Shown here piece after piece: positions 211-40,009 of a stretch of DNA of 64,000 nucleotides (position 1 is the stretch's first letter; each line of letters opens with the position of its first letter). The position numbers and the translations under genes are program-made. Source of the DNA: a virus; the IMG/VR virus record IMGVR_UViG_3300048588_000891, positions 1-64,000 of that record. The stretch is one strand, 5' to 3'. The notes beneath the pieces are model-generated. The model did not search any database. It was not told where the DNA came from and worked only from the letters and a program-made list of their open reading frames with translations.

Positions 211-969
211 ATGGCTGATACCGCAAATCCAATTGTGACAAAACTCGTATCCGTAGCGCGGCGCCTAAAGGCCATTGCAGTTGTCGATGGCCCGGAGGAT
301 GAAAAGGAGCTGAAAAAATTCAGAAGCCTTAATGGCAACGCCCGCCTTTATATCGTCTCGCCGAAGGTCAAGGTCGCGGCTGACGACAAAACAATTTCCG
401 CTCCTGCGAGTTCGTATGTGGCTGGCGTATTTTCAAGAATCAACTTCTGGCAGTCGCCATCGAACCAGCCGCTGTATGGAATTCTTGGAACGAGCGTGGG
501 GATCTCCTTTGAGATGGATGATCCCGAGTCCACGGCCCAGCAGTATAACGCCATGCAAATTGCGACTCTTATCCGCGAGGATGGGGGCTTCAGGGTATGG
601 GGAGCAAAGGGTACAGGAAGTCCATCGGACTCCAAAACGAGTCAGATTCAAAAGGTCCGCATCGCCGATGCCATCGAAGAGGCCATCGCCGCCTCAACCC
701 GCTGGGCGGTGGCCGCAGGCATTAATCGCGACTTCATAGGAGCGGTTGAAAGAAAGGTGAACAACTTTTTTTCAGATCTGATTCGTGAGGGTGCCATTGT
801 CGGCGGCGAATGCAAGGGCGATACGGAACGCAACACGGCCGATGCTCTGGCCCGTGGCGATGTCTACTGGAAGTACAGCTTCACGCCAACCGCCGTGGCC
901 GAGACGCTTCACTTTGAAGGATTTAACACCAATAAATACTACGAAAATTTTGGAGAAGGAGCCCAATGA
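211..969 (+). CDS. Contractile tail sheath protein, C-terminal part (P2 FI-like)
   Basis: The 252-residue product matches the C-terminal two thirds of P2-type sheath proteins. It has a VVDGP strand near residue 26, an APASSYVAGVFSR segment, a WQSPSNQPLYGILGTS block, a RVWGAKG block and a DVYWKYSFTPTAVAE C-terminal sheath fold. ATG 211 is in the same frame as the upstream fragment, separated only by TGA and GCC. A GGGGGA stretch about 9 nt upstream could serve as a ribosome site. The stop overlaps the next start as ATGA. A complete P2-like sheath is about 390 residues, so neither piece is full length on its own. Confidence 0.85.
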   Translation: MADTANPIVTKLVSVARRLKAIAVVDGPEDEKELKKFRSLNGNARLYIVSPKVKVAADDKTISAPASSYVAGVFSRINFWQSPSNQPLYGILGTSVGISFEMDDPESTAQQYNAMQIATLIREDGGFRVWGAKGTGSPSDSKTSQIQKVRIADAIEEAIAASTRWAVAAGINRDFIGAVERKVNNFFSDLIREGAIVGGECKGDTERNTADALARGDVYWKYSFTPTAVAETLHFEGFNTNKYYENFGEGAQ

Positions 970-2171
970 ATTCATTTCGTCTGATTTTATTCGCAGCCAT
1001 TTTATGTTTAGGCTTTGCCGCCTTCGCCCAGCAAACAGCGCCGCTTTTTTCCGATAATGAAAGTCCCACGTTTGAAAGCACCTATCTTATCGACAACATC
1101 GGCACCAACAGCAAGGGCGGGGACCTCACGCTCAGGATCCACAAAACAGCCCCATTCGGTGAGTGCAAGGACAGGGTGAACTGCCCTCCGTCGGTGATTG
1201 TGTCCGGGGCCACAGGAAATGTGAACATGCCTGTCGATGTGAATGTCCGCTCACTTCATGTCGGCAAAATTCCCGTGATTGATGCCACTGGAAAATGGGT
1301 GGGGCCTTCCACGGGACTTATCGGTCCCAAGGGTGACAAAGGCGATCCCGGCATCCCGGGCCCAAAAGGGGATAAGGGTGATGCGGGGCCCGAGGGGCCG
1401 CGTGGTGAGCGCGGCTTTGATGGTGCCATGGGACCGGCCGGCCCCAAAGGTGACAAGGGTGATCCCGGAACTCCAGGCGAAAAAGGTGAAGCAGGATCTC
1501 CCGGGCCGCGAGGTGAGCGTGGCGAGCGTGGTCCGGAAGGTGCCACGGGACCGGCAGGTGCCAAGGGCGACAAGGGTGATCCTGGAAGGCCGGGTGAAGG
1601 CTGCTGGTATAACGATCAACTGCAAAGGATCAACTGCGGGGAGACCTGGATTGAGATCGCAAATCTCAAAGGTCCGAAAGGTGATTCCGGATCTGCAGGA
1701 CCCAAGGGTGACAGAGGCGACAGGGGGGACAAGGGCGACAAGGGTGATCGGGGAATTCCAGGTGAAGGCTGCTGGTATGACGACCAGGCGCAAAGGATCA
1801 ATTGTGCGGGAGGCACCTGGATTCCGATCACACTTTTAAAAGGACCGCAGGGTGAAAGAGGACCCATGGGGCTTACAGGACCAAAAGGCAATACAGGTCC
1901 CATGGGTCCTCAGGGGCCAAAAGGAACCGTTGGCAGCTGCAGAAGCGTTTCAGCTGAGGTTTCCATTTTTCAGATGACAGAGGTTTCCGCTTCCTGCGAC
2001 AGCGGCGAAATTCTCATAGGTGGCGGCTGCCATATTACCGGCGGAATCGGTGTGCAGCTTCAGACGTCGGCTCCCATTATTGAAGAGCTTACCTACGCTT
2101 GTGAATGGATCTGGAAATCGGGAGTCAGTCCTCTGGTCAAGGGTACTGCCGTTGCCACCTGCTGCAAATGA
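966..2171 (+). CDS. Exported collagen-like protein inserted among tail genes
   Basis: The 401-residue product begins with a clear signal peptide (LILFAAILCLGFAAFAQQ). It then has a roughly 95-residue N-domain and three Gly-X-Y tracts at about residues 120-210, 236-267 and 293-322, rich in GPKGDKGD units. The tracts are separated by two near-identical inserts of about 25 residues starting GEGCWY. A cysteine-containing C-domain follows. Collagen-like repeats are common in phage fibres, but a Sec signal is not expected for a virion protein. It may be a cargo gene acting on the host surface. ATG overlaps the sheath stop by 4 nt, so it is translationally coupled. Confidence 0.8.
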   Translation: MNSFRLILFAAILCLGFAAFAQQTAPLFSDNESPTFESTYLIDNIGTNSKGGDLTLRIHKTAPFGECKDRVNCPPSVIVSGATGNVNMPVDVNVRSLHVGKIPVIDATGKWVGPSTGLIGPKGDKGDPGIPGPKGDKGDAGPEGPRGERGFDGAMGPAGPKGDKGDPGTPGEKGEAGSPGPRGERGERGPEGATGPAGAKGDKGDPGRPGEGCWYNDQLQRINCGETWIEIANLKGPKGDSGSAGPKGDRGDRGDKGDKGDRGIPGEGCWYDDQAQRINCAGGTWIPITLLKGPQGERGPMGLTGPKGNTGPMGPQGPKGTVGSCRSVSAEVSIFQMTEVSASCDSGEILIGGGCHITGGIGVQLQTSAPIIEELTYACEWIWKSGVSPLVKGTAVATCCK

Positions 2172-9032: not shown

Positions 9033-10328
9033 CTATGGGATCAAATATGTGTTTCTTCGAGCAGTCCTCCCTTTCTGCTTTTGAAATAACCCTTTAGCTA
9101 GCAAATTGTTGACTAGACGAACTGTGTTGGATGCGTCACTTCCAATAGACTTGGCAATCTCAGCTAGACTCAATTTAGATCCCGCCTCCCAATCCTTATG
9201 GAGGTCTATGAGCACTGTCAGTAGAACCTTCATTTCATTCGCAGACAAGTCGGCCTGGACTGCTTTTTGTAGGATTTCAACGGCCTTCTGATGAAGGATT
9301 CGGACTTTCCGAATGTTCTTTCTATCAATTGGGCTACTTAATGCTGTGCTGTCTTCGCTGATATTATCGTCGTCGACAGCATCATCTATGACAGCATTTG
9401 ATCGAACACTGTGCTCTAAAACAGTCTCTTTGCTGACAGTGTTCTGGTTAACACTGTCTTGAGTAAGAGTGTTTAGGAAAACAGTGTTTGATTTGAAAGT
9501 ATCATCACGAACAGTGTCGTCTTTGATGCTATTTTCACTGATGGTGTTCTGCCCAACACTGTTATCGACGATGGCGTTTGCCAGCATAGCATCATGTGGG
9601 ATGTTATTCGTCAGAACAGTATTATCAGGAACACTGTTCTGGACAATATTATCCTTATCAATAGTATCCTGAGTAATGCTGTAGGCAGCAACATTATTCG
9701 CATTAATGCTATTTGCTGAAACAGTGTTGTCCAGAACAGTATTGTAGGAGATAGGTTTGTTTTGAATGTTGTCATCAATAATACTGTCGTCAAGAACACT
9801 GTTATGCAAAACAGTGTTCTGATCAATAATATTACCATCGCCCGGATGGTAGGCACTCAGAACATTATTGCCAGGAACAGTATTATGCCGAACAGTATCA
9901 TCCGTGACGATATCGGCTCCGGCATTGAACCTGTTTATCGCAATGCTGTTCTCTTCAACAGTGTTCTGTACGATAGTGTTGGAGTCTACACTGCTGTCCC
10001 CCTCTTGAGGTTGTGAATCGACCTCTTTGGAATGGAAGACAGAAACAGTGTTCGCTTGAATGTTGTCGACCGGTACAGTGTTCTGGGCGATACTGTTTGA
10101 TAGGATAGGGTCGCTATCCTCTAAATTATTGGAATATTTTACATTTGTGTGATCCGCTGAGGCTCCAATGCGCTCTTCCATAACAGCATGGCCAGCGGAT
10201 TTTCCACTTTTGCTTTTCGCCTTTTTCTCAGCGAGTTCTCTTCGTTTGGCCTCTCGCTCGGCCTTTTGAGCTGCCAGCTGTTCCATTTTTTCTTTGTGAC
10301 TAATCCCAGCTTTTTCTCGACTAGACAT
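9033..10328 (-). CDS. ParA-associated pentapeptide-repeat protein with C-terminal winged helix
   Basis: The 431-residue product has three parts. An N-terminal charged helix (about 12-45) is rich in KAERE/KRRELAEKK. Residues about 77-323 are a repeat region, with 32 uninterrupted five-residue units (164-323) of pattern x-x-(N/D)-(T/S/N/A)-(V/I). Residues about 330-431 look like a winged helix (LSLAEIAKSIGSDASNTVR). The repeats do not fit the classical A(D/N)LXX pentapeptide. ATG 10328 is preceded by AGGAGG 9 nt upstream and overlaps the parA stop by 8 nt, so it stands where a ParB-type adaptor would. No ParB family match is visible. Confidence 0.8.
   Translation of the reverse strand: MSSREKAGISHKEKMEQLAAQKAEREAKRRELAEKKAKSKSGKSAGHAVMEERIGASADHTNVKYSNNLEDSDPILSNSIAQNTVPVDNIQANTVSVFHSKEVDSQPQEGDSSVDSNTIVQNTVEENSIAINRFNAGADIVTDDTVRHNTVPGNNVLSAYHPGDGNIIDQNTVLHNSVLDDSIIDDNIQNKPISYNTVLDNTVSANSINANNVAAYSITQDTIDKDNIVQNSVPDNTVLTNNIPHDAMLANAIVDNSVGQNTISENSIKDDTVRDDTFKSNTVFLNTLTQDSVNQNTVSKETVLEHSVRSNAVIDDAVDDDNISEDSTALSSPIDRKNIRKVRILHQKAVEILQKAVQADLSANEMKVLLTVLIDLHKDWEAGSKLSLAEIAKSIGSDASNTVRLVNNLLAKGLFQKQKGRTARRNTYLIP
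9360..10115. repeat. Intragenic array of 15-bp near-palindromic repeats
   Basis: Inside the pentapeptide-repeat gene the sequence AACA(C/G)TGTT or a close variant recurs at 15-bp spacing, in phase with the reading frame. About nine copies are perfect nine-mers. Many others differ by one base. Thr-Val and Ser-Val pairs are almost always written ACT-GTT or AGT-GTT although other codons were available. The motif reads the same on both strands apart from its central base, as a dimeric DNA-binding site would. Confidence 0.75.
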
Positions 10329-11571: not shown

Positions 11572-11721
11572 GTTAGTGTTCTCTACGACAGTATTAGCAG
11601 CACCAGTGTTACCCGCACCAGTGTCGCCCGCACCAGTGTCGCCCGCACCAGTGTTACCCGCACCAGTGTTACCCGCACCAGTGTTACCCGCACCAGTGTT
11701 ACCCGCACCAGTATTGAAAAT
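11572..11721. repeat. Non-coding array of ten 15-bp iterons (candidate centromere or origin)
   Basis: Ten 15-bp units run in phase. Seven (starting 11602, 11617, 11632, 11647, 11662, 11677 and 11692) follow ACCAGTGTTACCCGC or differ at one or two bases, with GTGTC replacing GTGTT in two. Units at 11572, 11587 and 11707 are degenerate. The core (C)CAGTGTT differs by about one base from AACAGTGTT in the intragenic array and has the same 15-bp period. The array lies upstream of parA and 175 bp before the rep-like gene, so it could be a centromere, a replication origin, or both. Confidence 0.85.
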
Positions 11722-11895: not shown

Positions 11896-13581
11896 ATGGC
11901 CGCTTTTGCTGAAGTGCTTGAATGGAAACCTGGCCGCCGAAATCGCGAACGTCCTGAAACACCGGGCGGGAACATTGCTCGCGGGCATCATATCTATGGA
12001 TACTGGACATATAATGACGACGGCTCCAAGGATCAGGCATTCCCGCTGGGAATGAACCATAAGGTTTTCCCGAGCCAAGAGAAGCTGATTAGCACGGCTG
12101 TATGGAATCCAGGAAAGAAGACTTGGACCCTGCTTTTCATGCAGTTCGATCTCGACTTCAAGAATGCGAATCCAAAATGGATTCTTGACGGAAAAATTTC
12201 CTGGCCATTGGTACAGGAGCATTTGCGGGTACACGAGCCGAAATTTTTTGAAGCGATTGTGTATGCTGTCATGTCCACGGGAGGCTGCGGGCTGTCAATC
12301 GTCCTTTCGATTGCACCGTTTGTGCTTTGTGACGAGAATAGAACGATCGAATCCCGCGCGTCGCATCTGCAAACCATGCTCATAAAAATGCTCAATCATC
12401 ATGGCTTGGGGGCTGACTACAGCGCGGCGGGCCTTAAGCGGTTCATGCCAAATTTTAAGAACCCAAGGCGGCTGATTTATGAGAACGCCATCCGACGCAA
12501 ATGGGTCGAGAATACCCGGCATTTTGTTGTCCGCGAGCTGTACCTGGCTTATCGGGATCACATTGCCTGCATCTATATCCGCAAAACGGAGCGATTGGAA
12601 TCCTTTCTGCACCCTGACTTTCGGGTCGAAAAGAAGCTGGCTAAGCTCTACTTCCAGCTGGACTGTGTCATAGCTCCCGGAGGCATCCGGAATTGCTCTT
12701 TGAAAGAGATTTGCGAGCTTACAGGCATGTCGCCATCCTCATTCTATCGTTCCGTGCTTGCGCGGGCCGACGTTCTCAAATGGCTTGAAATCAAACCGCT
12801 CGGGGGCCGCAAGGGATATGATCTGAAGTTCCTGGGCAACCCGCATTATGATGCCCGGGTCCAGGAAATCCTATTTGGGTCCGCGAAGCCGGACCATCGC
12901 GAGACAGTTTCCAGGCCGCAGGTCGACTCCGAACCCGCCGACGTCGTAGACGGCGAGCGCAACACTTTCCTCTGGCAGTCAGCAGTAAAAATGAAACACG
13001 CCCTCATCCCCGAGGAGACGGCGCTGGCTGCGCTTCGGATCATCGCCAGCGGCGTGCCAGGGTACGGAGGAAGAGACAGCTGGTCTCTGCGTAATCCCGA
13101 GCGAATCTGCCGCTCTATCTATAAGTGCCGCCCGCGTGAGGGCAACAGCCCTGTTCTCCGGCAGCTGCCAGGGTATCTATATATTGCCGTGAAACAGGCA
13201 GAAAAGCGGGCAAACCAAGCCAAAAAAGCTTATGCGAAAAATTTAGATGTTGGAACCCTATTGGGTTCCACATTGTTCGCAGCAGTACCAAGCAGCCCGG
13301 AGCGGGAGGTCTCTCGGTTTTCCTCCCAGGCTTTCCCTTCCCACACCCCGGCGGGTGTCAGGCCGGGGGGTACGGGGGCGGGCCAGGCCCCCGGTCAGGT
13401 GGTTGATACCCAACTGCATTCCACCCAGGTGGTTGATACAGAACAGCCTGAAATTTACCCAGCAGCGGACCGCGCGATTTTTGAACCGGCGCCACAGATT
13501 GCTAGGCTGGTAACCGGTGGAATGCCGACGACCGGCTCCGTGCAGTCCCCAGTCGGTCATGCAGCGGAGGACAAAAACTAA
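11896..13581 (+). CDS. Putative plasmid replication initiator (Rep)
   Basis: The 561-residue product is not firmly recognised. Its position beside iterons and parA suggests a replication initiator. Residues 81-88 (FMQFDLDF) resemble the hhDhD motif I of archaeo-eukaryotic primases, with D85 and D87. A winged-helix-like segment (CSLKEICELTGMSPSSFYRSV) lies at about 258-280. The C-terminal 100 residues are low-complexity and include a repeated QVVDT motif. GGAG lies 8 nt upstream of ATG 11896. Another DNA-binding role is possible. Confidence 0.6.
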   Translation: MAAFAEVLEWKPGRRNRERPETPGGNIARGHHIYGYWTYNDDGSKDQAFPLGMNHKVFPSQEKLISTAVWNPGKKTWTLLFMQFDLDFKNANPKWILDGKISWPLVQEHLRVHEPKFFEAIVYAVMSTGGCGLSIVLSIAPFVLCDENRTIESRASHLQTMLIKMLNHHGLGADYSAAGLKRFMPNFKNPRRLIYENAIRRKWVENTRHFVVRELYLAYRDHIACIYIRKTERLESFLHPDFRVEKKLAKLYFQLDCVIAPGGIRNCSLKEICELTGMSPSSFYRSVLARADVLKWLEIKPLGGRKGYDLKFLGNPHYDARVQEILFGSAKPDHRETVSRPQVDSEPADVVDGERNTFLWQSAVKMKHALIPEETALAALRIIASGVPGYGGRDSWSLRNPERICRSIYKCRPREGNSPVLRQLPGYLYIAVKQAEKRANQAKKAYAKNLDVGTLLGSTLFAAVPSSPEREVSRFSSQAFPSHTPAGVRPGGTGAGQAPGQVVDTQLHSTQVVDTEQPEIYPAADRAIFEPAPQIARLVTGGMPTTGSVQSPVGHAAEDKN

Positions 13582-24435: not shown

Positions 24436-24543
24436 GTGATCCGTGACACGCATCACTGCTCTACTGACAGATTTCTACTGTTTTTCAAGGCTGAAGTGGA
24501 TTGGTCTGCTTCGCATCGGGCGGAGCTTTGTCTGGAGTGTTCT

Positions 24544-26730
24544 GTGAGTGCAGCAACGGAGTTATTCGCAACGAGCACAGTTCGTCGACTGCGGGAGCAA
24601 TCCTATTCTCTGCAGCGCGATGGTCATTTCTGGGTGACGTCCTGGAAGATGGTGGCTGCGTTGGGTCAACGTGAGCTTCTTGTACTTGGCTATCTTGGTT
24701 CGGCTGACCCAGCCGACCATCCTTCCCGTGCGGAATTGGGAACGAACCTGGGGATCCAGGGAAAACGAACTCAGAAGATTCTGGATGATCTACATGCGCG
24801 GCGAATCCTGTTCCGCGACTTTGTCGCCTATGGACGCCGGGACAAATCGCTTTGGCATCTTTCTCATCCAGGCTGGTGGCAGGGATGCAGCGGCTTTACC
24901 CCGGATGCCTCGACCACCGACCCCGCTTCCTATCAATCGCTGCAGTTCATGCGCGATCGGGATAGAAAGCGTATCAATCAACTTCGATCCTTCATTCTCG
25001 CGCAGGACGATACCGTGCGCGTGCCAAATCTCCTTTTCAGAATGCCGGTCAGCTGGCGGGCAAAGTACCTCTATATTCGTCTGCTCTTTCTTGGGGAGAA
25101 CATACAGCCTACCGTTGATGAGCTGGCGGCTCTGGTGGGCTGGGACTGGCGGACGGTGCGCTCGGCGATGAATGAACTGTCCGACCACCAAATGATCGCA
25201 ATTCAGACGGCTGACACCCGGGTCTTCACAGGCTGGAAACGTCACTATTTGCACCTAACGGACTGCTACGACTGGAGGCATGATCAGGCAAAGATGCAGT
25301 TCTCCGCGCCCAAAGTTTCCCGGGTTCGATCCCTTGATCTTTCTCCATCCGAGCCGCGGTGGCGAGCGATCAAAAAGCAGATGTTTACGCCGCACCGCGC
25401 CGACGCGGGCAGCTACACCGTGTCATTCCAATTTGATGGACAGCACTATAGTGCGCCTTTTTTTTGTGACAACGGGAACTACGAAACTGCATTCGGGAAC
25501 TGCGAGGCTGCAAAAGGGAACTGCGAAGCTGCAGAACTTTCCCTGATGAACCCGGTGCAGGCCCCGGCCCGCAAGGGCTCGGGGACCTATAAGAAAGCAT
25601 ATCAAGATAGCCCGCAAGAATGCATTCGCGTGCGCGCGTGCGTGGATGACAGTAATGCCGGTATTTCAAAAGCCCGGGCCATTTCGATCGCGGAAGGAGC
25701 GAGGGACGTCTGGGTCTGGGAAAGCTTTAAATGCGACCGTGCTCTCTGGACCGACGAGGTGCAGACGTTTGCGAACACATACGGCGAGGCTGATGCCAGG
25801 CGGCTGGTGGCTTATGCCAACGAAGTTCTTCTGGCAAGAGGCCGCCGCCGACTTGCGTACAATGTCACGTCGATTGGAATGTTGATTGCCGGATTTCTCG
25901 ATCAAATCCCGGCATCCGAATTCGGCAAAGACAGGGCCGCTTACGCGGCAAATCCGGCTCTTGAATGCGAAGTTTTGGCGCATACCTCCCATTCAAGCGC
26001 AACTGCCTTCATAACCGCCGCTGACGGAACACTGCCTCTGCCATCAACCGGGATGGAATCAGCGGAACCTGGGCCGGTTTCTGCGGCGATGGAGGCTCAA
26101 CCTGAATCGGTCGACCTCCCTGTGGCGCCCGATCGGGATCCGCTCGCAAACCTGCCGGCGGATGAAGATCGCCTGCGCTGGGTCGTGGGCCGCATGCTGC
26201 CAAAACTCGGCAAAAGCCAGAAGGCTGACCTGCGGGATCTCTGGCAGAAGCACGGACCACGCGGTGCTGTCCTAAGGTTCGCCGGCAAGTCGGACGAAAA
26301 TTGCCTGGCTGTCATGGGGGCATCGAACGAGCTCTCGAAAGTAGGGATCTTGAGAAGCGCGGACATCCCGCGGCTGCCCTGGGAAAATCCAAAACCTGCC
26401 GAGGGCGATTCTCAAACCATGGCCACAGACTGCGCGCCCGCACAGGAAAACTCCGCGGCCTCGAGTACGGACAGCCATTCGACTCTTCTGAGCGATTTCC
26501 GCGCATGCCAGGAGCGGAGGCTTGCCGGCGAAAAAGCCTCCGAGGGCACGCCCATCACCCGGGCTCGTCTCAATAATGCGTTCGCTGTACTCGCCCGCGA
26601 CATGAAATTCAGCGCTCGCACCAGGATGCTGATGGAACTTGGGAAGCTGAACGACGCCGATCTGTGGTCACGCCTTGCGGAAACTTTCACCGAACCGATG
26701 CTTTTGGAGGTGCTCCGTGACATCCCCTGA
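24544..26730 (+). CDS. Large winged-helix protein, putative replication factor
   Basis: The product is about 728 residues from GTG 24544, which has GGAG 6 nt upstream; a GTG at 24436 gives a longer form without a ribosome site. Two winged-helix segments are visible: ELLVLGYLGS to TQKILDDLHARRIL, and AKYLYIRLLFLG to LAALVGWDWRTVRSAMNEL. The middle carries three 21-nt tandem repeats (25474-25536) encoding GNCEAAK-type units. The C-terminal half is low in motifs. It heads a rightward operon with a helicase, so a replication role is inference. Confidence 0.55.
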   Translation: MSAATELFATSTVRRLREQSYSLQRDGHFWVTSWKMVAALGQRELLVLGYLGSADPADHPSRAELGTNLGIQGKRTQKILDDLHARRILFRDFVAYGRRDKSLWHLSHPGWWQGCSGFTPDASTTDPASYQSLQFMRDRDRKRINQLRSFILAQDDTVRVPNLLFRMPVSWRAKYLYIRLLFLGENIQPTVDELAALVGWDWRTVRSAMNELSDHQMIAIQTADTRVFTGWKRHYLHLTDCYDWRHDQAKMQFSAPKVSRVRSLDLSPSEPRWRAIKKQMFTPHRADAGSYTVSFQFDGQHYSAPFFCDNGNYETAFGNCEAAKGNCEAAELSLMNPVQAPARKGSGTYKKAYQDSPQECIRVRACVDDSNAGISKARAISIAEGARDVWVWESFKCDRALWTDEVQTFANTYGEADARRLVAYANEVLLARGRRRLAYNVTSIGMLIAGFLDQIPASEFGKDRAAYAANPALECEVLAHTSHSSATAFITAADGTLPLPSTGMESAEPGPVSAAMEAQPESVDLPVAPDRDPLANLPADEDRLRWVVGRMLPKLGKSQKADLRDLWQKHGPRGAVLRFAGKSDENCLAVMGASNELSKVGILRSADIPRLPWENPKPAEGDSQTMATDCAPAQENSAASSTDSHSTLLSDFRACQERRLAGEKASEGTPITRARLNNAFAVLARDMKFSARTRMLMELGKLNDADLWSRLAETFTEPMLLEVLRDIP
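25474..25536 (+). repeat. Three 21-bp tandem repeats in coding sequence
   Basis: Units start at 25474, 25495 and 25516 and share GGGAACT(A/G)CGA(A/G)(A/G)CTGCA. They encode GNYETAF, GNCEAAK and GNCEAAE. They look like recent slippage expansion within a linker. Confidence 0.7.
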
Positions 26731-39119: not shown

Positions 39120-39161
39120 TCCAAAACCTGTTTCATGTCAACCAACGATCGTAGCGCAGCG

Positions 39162-39182
39162 TGTTCGCAGTTTTTGCGAACA
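39162..39182. repeat. Palindrome TGTTCGCA/TGCGAACA (copy 1)
   Basis: TGTTCGCA (39162-39169) and TGCGAACA (39175-39182) are perfect arms. A second, longer copy lies at 61226-61250. Both lie about 65-80 bp upstream of protease genes. Candidate operators. Confidence 0.5.
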
Positions 39183-39259
39183 GCAGATTTCTTCGTCTTC
39201 ACGGCGCGCAGAGGTATCCTTCCAGAAGCCTGATTCAAGGCTTTGGACAAGGAATCGTG

Positions 39260-40009
39260 ATGACCGTGAGAAAAAATTTAGGCTGGCTCCCAGATAATGC
39301 TGATGAACGCGACTTCATCTATAAAGCGAAAAGATCATCTCAGAAATTCCCCGCGGTGGTCGATCATCGAAGGCGCTATTTCCGCGTGTGGGATCAGGGC
39401 GATCTAGGCTCATGCACGGCCCAAGCTGCATGCGCGGCCTGCATGTTCCTGGATGTCTATGATCAGGACATGCCGGTGGTTCTGCCTTCGCGGCTATTCG
39501 TTTACTATGCGACCCGAACTCTCGAAGGTACGAAGAACACCGATTCAGGCGCAACGCTGCGGAATACCATCAAAGCTATCGCCACCTGGGGATATCCGCC
39601 CGAGGATCAATGGCCCTATGACATCAAAAAATTCTCGATTCGTCCTCCAGACCAGGCCATTGCCGTGGCTGCGAAGGAAAGGATCAAATCCTACGAGCGT
39701 CTCGGTCGCGATCTTGATCAGTTCCGTGAGGTGATTGGCGAGGGCCATCCGATCATTCTGGGCTTCTCGGTCTACCCTTCCATCGACGGTCGCAATGTGC
39801 GAAAGACCGGATACATCCCCGTACCGAAGCCAGGCGAGAAGCGCGATGGCGGCCATGCGGTCCTGGTCTGCGGGTATGATGATACGAAAGAGGCCCTCAT
39901 CATCAGAAACAGCTGGGGTGACGGCTGGGGCGAGGAAGGTTATGGCTATCTTCCCTACCGCTTTATCGAGGATCCAAAGCTGTCCGGTGATTTCTGGACC
40001 ATCCGTTAA
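39260..40009 (+). CDS. Cytoplasmic C1 (papain-like) cysteine peptidase
   Basis: The 249-residue product has a papain-type catalytic set: C52 in DQGDLGSCTAQAA, a His in DGGHAVLVCGYDD near residue 199, and an Asn in IRNSWGDGWGEEGYGYLPY near 216. AAGGA precedes ATG 39260. There is no signal peptide or propeptide, so it acts in the cytoplasm or is packaged or released at lysis. C1 peptidases are unusual next to phage lysis genes. A distant exported relative is at 47966-49495. Confidence 0.88.
   Translation: MTVRKNLGWLPDNADERDFIYKAKRSSQKFPAVVDHRRRYFRVWDQGDLGSCTAQAACAACMFLDVYDQDMPVVLPSRLFVYYATRTLEGTKNTDSGATLRNTIKAIATWGYPPEDQWPYDIKKFSIRPPDQAIAVAAKERIKSYERLGRDLDQFREVIGEGHPIILGFSVYPSIDGRNVRKTGYIPVPKPGEKRDGGHAVLVCGYDDTKEALIIRNSWGDGWGEEGYGYLPYRFIEDPKLSGDFWTIR

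What the first reader, a model, noticed from the sequence alone, without database searches (positions are those of the whole stretch)
9033..10328. Adaptor-like gene whose coding DNA is itself a 15-bp binding-site array
In the gene after parA, AACA(C/G)TGTT recurs every 15 bp in register with a five-residue protein repeat. The nine-mer encodes NTV in one central-base form and NSV in the other, and is a palindrome except for that base. Thr/Ser-Val pairs are almost always written ACT-GTT or AGT-GTT, so selection appears to act on DNA as well as protein. If the encoded winged-helix protein binds this motif, the gene would be its own centromere or control locus.
Basis: partly seen in the sequence, partly recalled or inferred. 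Interest (0 to 1): 0.92.

Follow-up and report, generated by a model that had tools for sequence, protein, structure and literature searches.

The report
Gene carrying its own binding-site array
In this virus, and in a scattered family of plasmids and viruses related to it, the gene for a DNA-binding DNA-inheritance protein has an array of repeated DNA sites written into its own coding sequence, so one stretch of DNA very probably serves both as gene and as the docking site for the protein it encodes.

Summary
The gene after parA (9033-10328, minus strand) encodes 38 [N/D][T/S/N][V/I]xx pentads. Core four-fold-degenerate sites are T in 38/44, against 7/31 in the neighbouring x codons (p=3e-8). 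Repeated nine-mers exceed every one of 500 synonymous-codon permutations. The 'palindrome' is not separately selected: its halves do not covary.

The wider family supplies the decisive evidence. Nineteen related parA + winged-helix-adaptor modules came from Bdellovibrio, Piscirickettsia, Legionella and endosymbiont plasmids, bacterial assemblies and virus contigs. In 17 the adaptor gene contains an array of a module-specific motif. Unlike here, the relatives' motifs recur at about 11-bp multiples (124/140 spacings) and, in 16/17, in more than one reading frame, so DNA rather than peptide is selected. In four relatives the same motif also lies upstream of parA. On complete pBdHAGR5 it occurs only inside the adaptor gene.

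Most likely these are the adaptor's binding sites, acting as a centromere. A RepA_N-style intragenic replication origin remains the main rival. Nearest precedents are SCP2 ParT (one parS in parT) and pSK41 rep. Binding and function are untested.

The parts
9033..10328 (-). Adaptor gene: basic N-terminal helix, repeat linker, C-terminal winged helix
   Evidence: ORF, ATG behind AGGAGG, weak MarR/IclR-type HTH matches, AF2 models
9360..10097 (-). Intragenic site array: 38 cores [N/D][T/S/N][V/I] written (A/G)A(C/T)A(C/G/A)T(G/A)T(T/C), period 15 bp, one reading frame
9036..9275 (-). MarR-like winged helix-turn-helix domain, free of the array
10197..10328 (-). Lys/Arg/Glu-rich N-terminal helix, candidate ParA-contacting segment
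   Evidence: AF2 pLDDT about 80; the role is inference from ParB/ParT N-termini (PMC12260392)
10321..11406 (-). parA: N-terminal HTH_17 plus ParA ATPase (KGGVGK)
   Evidence: Pfam AAA_31 5.6e-31 and HTH_17 4.4e-6; best relative Bdellovibrio pBdHAGR2 ParA, 32% over 94%
11572..11715 (.). Second site array upstream of parA: ten units in 15-bp register, unit CACCAGTGTTACCCG (AACACTG on the gene strand); its unit at 11587 is the best match to the gene's motif anywhere outside the gene
   Evidence: open frame reaching into parA but with no ATG/GTG/TTG start before the array
11896..13581 (+). Divergent 561-aa HTH protein across the upstream array, function unknown; possible replication gene (inference)

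Best explanation
This is a ParA-type maintenance module of a virus that probably persists as a plasmid. The second gene encodes a ParB-like adaptor: a basic N-terminal helix that would contact ParA, a long disordered linker, and a MarR-like winged helix. The winged helix binds a short site, repeated every 15 bp both upstream of parA and about 38 times inside the linker-coding part of the adaptor's own gene. Many adaptors then load on one stretch of DNA, forming a high-density partition complex that ParA moves; binding upstream would also repress the operon. The linker tolerates almost any sequence, so it can host the array. In related modules the array sits in linkers, usually on both sides of the winged helix, at 11-bp (helical-turn) spacing without regard to reading frame, and each plasmid has its own motif, as expected for incompatibility specificity. 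Shown: the arrays, their DNA-level selection, the shared upstream motif, motif specificity, synteny. Inferred: that the adaptor binds the motif, that ParA acts on it, that the role is partition.
For: Codon-level selection in the focal gene. A second array upstream of parA with the same core and period; the best non-gene match to the gene motif in the window lies in it, in register. 19 relatives with the same parA-adaptor order: arrays in 17 adaptor genes, in more than one frame in 16/17, with 124/140 spacings within 1 bp of a multiple of 11 and only 37/140 multiples of 3. Identical motif upstream and in-gene in Piscirickettsia p1PS5 (9 and 7 copies of CGGAACACAA, 0 in parA), pPSA1-1 (4 and 5 of CCGTACACAA), pPSA1-4 and Bdellovibrio pBdHM1. 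Motifs are module-specific, near-diagonal matrix, including four co-resident plasmids of strain HAGR004. On complete pBdHAGR5 the motif occurs only in the adaptor gene. The linker is predicted disordered and the domain MarR-like. Precedents: ParT parS inside parT (PMC12260392); parC direct repeats, 11 bp for R1 (PMC9426499).
Against: No binding or stability data. The focal array is single-frame with 15-bp period, unlike the 11-bp frame-free arrays of relatives, so peptide-level selection also acts here. Two relatives (Legionella L036, Cardinium L035) lack an intragenic array. The focal winged helix is only distantly similar to the relatives' (hhalign probability 54%, 25% identity). Small plasmids such as pBdHAGR4 show no other recognised replication initiator, which leaves room for an origin role. 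The contig is metagenomic and a plasmid lifestyle is inferred.
Confidence: 0.62

Rival explanations
1. Intragenic replication origin: the adaptor is really a replication initiator, as in RepA_N plasmids, and the array is its iterons encoded in the linker between domains.
For: pSK41 Rep binds Rep boxes centrally within rep, and that region encodes a dispensable linker (PMC5703833); the oriV of a repABC plasmid lies in repC (PMC3155836). Many relatives have conserved lineage-specific C-terminal domains, and pBdHAGR4 has no other recognised Rep in a Pfam scan.
Against: No RepA_N or other Rep domain detected. The focal protein and pPSA1-1 lack any C-terminal domain. The focal virus has a separate DnaD/O-like replication gene at 24436-26730. 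11-bp or 15-bp units in dozens of copies resemble parC direct repeats more than 17-22 bp replication iterons (partly from general knowledge).
Confidence: 0.22
2. Protein-only repeat: a pentapeptide-repeat linker amplified by tandem duplication; the DNA similarity is a by-product.
For: The focal repeat is in one frame, with real [N/D][T/S/N][V/I] conservation. Lactococcus/Enterococcus/Carnobacterium genes with [DN]DTVK repeats show that such in-frame arrays occur.
Against: x codons are randomised while synonymous core sites are fixed. The same core and period recur upstream of parA. Relatives use several frames. Pfam finds no pentapeptide-repeat family, and AF2 predicts disorder, though from a single sequence.
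Confidence: 0.08
3. Transcriptional operator only: the sites autoregulate the par operon and in-gene copies act as repressor sinks or roadblocks, with no centromere role.
For: MarR-like domain; array between parA and its promoter region; ParB-type autorepression from iterons in pMF1 (PMC3235114).
Against: Dozens of copies are far more than an operator needs. In several relatives no array was seen within 800 bp upstream of parA while the gene is full of sites.
Confidence: 0.08

Closest known systems
SCP2 ParATS (Streptomyces): ParT with a parS inside the parT coding sequence (PMC12260392)
   Same: [quoted passage not shown] its loading site lies in its own gene
   Different: One 18-bp inverted repeat and spreading by sliding; here an array of dozens of short repeats in the linker-coding DNA, plus an upstream array. 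Sequence homology between the adaptors was not tested
RepA_N replicons such as pSK41 rep (PMC5703833)
   Same: DNA-binding protein whose own sites lie in the linker-coding part of its gene
   Different: Four Rep boxes, a replication origin, RepA_N domain; none of that detected here
ParMRC/parC centromeres (R1, pB171, Clostridium; PMC9426499)
   Same: Arrays of direct repeats (11 bp in R1, 10 bp in pB171) with plasmid-specific motifs that decide compatibility
   Different: ParR is ribbon-helix-helix, the motor is actin-like, and parC lies upstream of parM rather than inside the adaptor gene
pMF1 parCAB iterons (PMC3235114)
   Same: ParA system with many dispersed ParB iterons, some inside ORFs
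   Different: 8-bp motif spread along the plasmid, not packed in the adaptor gene

Membership tests
Type I (ParA) partition module | ParA-family deviant Walker ATPase | tested here: met
   AAA_31 5.6e-31, phrog_164 ParA-like 3e-36, KGGVGK conserved
Type I (ParA) partition module | Adjacent DNA-binding adaptor gene | tested here: met
   Overlapping downstream gene with a winged helix; same order in relatives
Type I (ParA) partition module | Centromere array bound by the adaptor, stabilising the replicon in cis | not testable with these tools
   Array present; binding and stability need experiments
Canonical ParB | ParB N-terminal CTPase / HTH_ParB domain | tested here: not met
   No ParB family in Pfam or NCBIfam
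RepA_N initiators | RepA_N domain | tested here: not met
   Not matched in the focal protein or relatives
RepA_N initiators | Own sites within the rep gene linker | tested here: met
   Arrays in linker-coding DNA: works like it in this respect; binding itself untested
Pentapeptide-repeat proteins | Pentapeptide-repeat family match and beta-helix fold | tested here: not met
   No Pfam match; AF2 disordered, pLDDT about 28 (single sequence, so weak)
parA + array-bearing winged-helix adaptor family (described here) | Homologous ParA with N-terminal HTH followed by a winged-helix adaptor | tested here: met
   32% to pBdHAGR2 ParA over 94%; matches to ParA in six further records; winged helix only weakly similar
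parA + array-bearing winged-helix adaptor family (described here) | Motif array within adaptor linker-coding DNA | tested here: met
parA + array-bearing winged-helix adaptor family (described here) | About 11-bp, reading-frame-independent register | tested here: not met
   Focal period 15 bp, one frame: a divergent variant
SCP2 ParATS | ParT homology and a single 18-bp parS | not tested
   ParT sequence not at hand; the focal sites are a short-repeat array, not an 18-bp inverted repeat

The most novel reading that the evidence does not exclude
A previously undescribed, widespread class of plasmid and phage-plasmid maintenance modules in which the disordered linkers of the ParA-partner adaptor are a coded-over centromere: a frame-independent, helically phased array of the adaptor's own binding sites, with motif and winged helix changing together to create incompatibility groups. 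The focal virus carries a 15-bp, in-frame form of it.
Probability: 0.55. Interest if true: 0.88.

Novelty: new variant of a known kind. Interest (0 to 1): 0.78.

Why it matters
It would show one DNA stretch selected at once as protein code and as a dense binding array, with disordered linkers as the place where this is cheap. It offers candidate centromeres (or origins) for plasmids where standard searches found none: the P. salmonis LF-89 plasmid paper reports no origin or iterons (PMC6963756), yet related P. salmonis plasmids carry these arrays. Because motif, winged helix and replicon appear to change together, the family is a natural test bed for how incompatibility groups arise, and array plus adaptor can be recognised from sequence alone.

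Tried and rejected
Close homologues of the focal gene: none in viral contigs, phages or plasmids; plasmid hits to Lactococcus/Enterococcus/Carnobacterium repeats and a Leptospira repeat are low-complexity matches to a different gene. DNA-pattern scans for paired or fourfold nine-mers in viral contigs gave unrelated low-complexity ORFs. ParA of the focal virus found no relatives in viral contigs. A broad winged-helix alignment was too divergent for a scan; a narrower one found L043-L047. Selection for a palindrome: rejected, halves do not covary. A beta-helix repeat protein: not supported. As a lone test, a 9-bp PWM scan is not specific (many 'other' hits at every threshold); its value lies in the top non-gene hit and the 15-bp register falling in the array. 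Wider genome scans found few further members. Kin of the virus record could not be drawn.

Full report
THE OBSERVATION. The gene lies on the minus strand, ATG at 10328 behind AGGAGG, overlapping the end of parA. The window has 8 exact AACASTGTT, all in this gene, against 0.33 expected. The repeat region holds 38 pentad cores [N/D][T/S/N][V/I], mostly 15 bp apart. Core Thr is ACT in 17/18 and core Val GTT in 17/21, against 17% and 24% in window genes, while Val outside the cores of the same region is GTT in 1/9. At four-fold degenerate sites the third base is T in 38/44 core codons and 7/31 x codons (p=3.4e-8). The x columns are close to random, so shared ancestry of repeats alone cannot keep the core synonymous sites fixed. 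With protein and codon counts held constant, repeated 9-mer pairs are 74 observed against 27.4 +/- 8.6, never reached in 500 permutations. The near-palindrome is real on paper (AAC and GTT are complementary codons), but the two halves vary independently (p=0.62), so symmetry is not separately selected.

A SECOND ARRAY. Tandem Repeats Finder finds a 15-bp array at 11589-11712, in the space between parA and a divergent 561-aa gene. Including degenerate edges it has ten units in strict 15-bp register from 11572 to 11715, with cores AGTGTT, AGTATT and AGTGTC, variants also found in the gene. The best match to the gene's motif anywhere outside the gene is its unit at 11587. The frame through this array is open into parA, but no common start codon precedes it, so it is most simply noncoding; a coding extension is not excluded.

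RELATIVES. The window is an IMG/VR virus record of 67.5 kb. No close homologue of the repeat gene was found. The focal ParA's best plasmid relative is from Bdellovibrio plasmid pBdHAGR2 (32% over 94%), then Piscirickettsia plasmids. In both, the next gene encodes a winged-helix protein whose DNA is full of short repeats. Following these proteins gave 19 related adaptors, nearly all seen directly behind a parA: Bdellovibrio pBdHAGR1, 2, 4, 5 and pBdHM1; several P. salmonis plasmids; Legionella, Cardinium and Bandiella; a MAG contig labelled Nitrosomonas; virus contigs L045, L046, L047, L049; and gamma-class assemblies. None of those tested has a Pfam or NCBIfam family.

DNA, NOT PEPTIDE, IN THE RELATIVES. 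In 17 of 19 the adaptor gene carries an array. Spacings of the commonest 8-mer fall within 1 bp of a multiple of 11 in 124 of 140 cases and are multiples of 3 in only 37. The motif occurs in more than one reading frame in 16 of 17 (for example L049 GATCCAAA 4/5/4, L038 3/2/3, L030 8/2/11); Bandiella is the exception. In the loci tested with synonymous permutations, array-bearing adaptors have roughly 5 to 25 times more repeated 9-mers than permuted controls, while parA controls show no such excess. The arrays typically stop at the winged-helix domain and, where there is a further linker, resume after it (gaps of about 280-370 bp). In p1PS5, pPSA1-1, pPSA1-4 and pBdHM1 the same motif also lies upstream of parA and is absent or nearly absent elsewhere in the loci. 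On the complete 10.9-kb pBdHAGR5 all nine copies are in the adaptor gene. Motifs are module-specific, with a near-diagonal matrix even among plasmids of one strain; the few shared pairs (L027/L047, L033/L046, L043/L045) are similar motifs.

STRUCTURE. AF2 gives a fairly confident basic N-terminal helix, a linker at pLDDT about 28, and a winged helix. Foldseek's best PDB matches for the winged helix are MarR-family proteins such as MepR and SlyA, at modest significance. The single-sequence model is poor evidence on the linker; it merely gives no support for a beta-helix.

MECHANISM. Most likely the winged helix binds the motif, the arrays concentrate many adaptors on the DNA, and their N-termini engage ParA, giving partition and autorepression. 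A high local adaptor density is a shared need of partition systems (PMC12260392). 11-bp direct repeats are the unit recognised in R1 parC (PMC9426499). The main rival is an intragenic replication origin: pSK41 Rep boxes lie in the rep linker (PMC5703833), the oriV of a repABC plasmid lies in repC (PMC3155836), and pBdHAGR4 shows no other recognised initiator. Both may be true in different members; the focal virus has its own O/DnaD-like gene and its adaptor lacks the C-terminal domain seen in most relatives, which favours partition there.

HOW THE FOCAL CASE DIFFERS. It has 15-bp period, one frame, pentapeptide conservation, and only distant winged-helix similarity to the relatives. It is best described as a divergent variant of the family, in which both peptide and DNA appear constrained.

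NOVELTY. An adaptor gene holding its own parS is known (SCP2 parT, one site) and a Rep gene holding its own boxes is known (pSK41). In the literature searched here, a frame-independent array packed through the adaptor's linkers, recurring across phyla with module-specific motifs, was not found. The P. salmonis LF-89 plasmid paper states that no origins or iterons were identified (PMC6963756).

Noticed in passing
L003 1331-2068; L006 1319-2095; L004 29-775: Gene after repB in Lactococcus/Enterococcus/Carnobacterium plasmids (rep_cluster_342) encodes an HTH protein with about 14-20 [DN][DN]TVK repeats, 15-bp period, mostly written ACC-GTC (20 of 26 Thr and 20 of 24 Val codons in L003), with the motif nowhere else in the fetched DNA. 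Possibly an independent case of the same idea.
   Followed up: partly
window 25471-25533: Three 21-bp repeats (AACGGGAACTGCGAAGCTGCA) inside the DnaD/O-like replication gene 24436-26730, reminiscent of origin iterons inside lambda O.
   Followed up: no
L032 3668-4804 and L033 2300-3577: pBdHAGR4 and pBdHAGR5 adaptors share a nearly identical C-terminal domain but have different winged helices and motifs, suggesting module swapping.
   Followed up: partly
L035 upstream of 2240: Cardinium plasmid has an array (GACTACTAA/GACTACCAA) upstream of parA and none inside the adaptor gene, the reverse of pBdHAGR5.
   Followed up: no
L028 4126-4333; L039 adaptor gene: Some arrays contain larger recent in-frame duplications (45-bp in pPSA1-4, 33-bp in Bandiella) on top of the short motif.
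   Followed up: no
window 966-2171; 39161-40009; 47966-49495: Virus contig encodes a collagen-like Gly-X-Y protein and two proteins that look like papain-type cysteine proteases, plus many short lipoprotein-like genes (judged by eye, not scanned).
   Followed up: no
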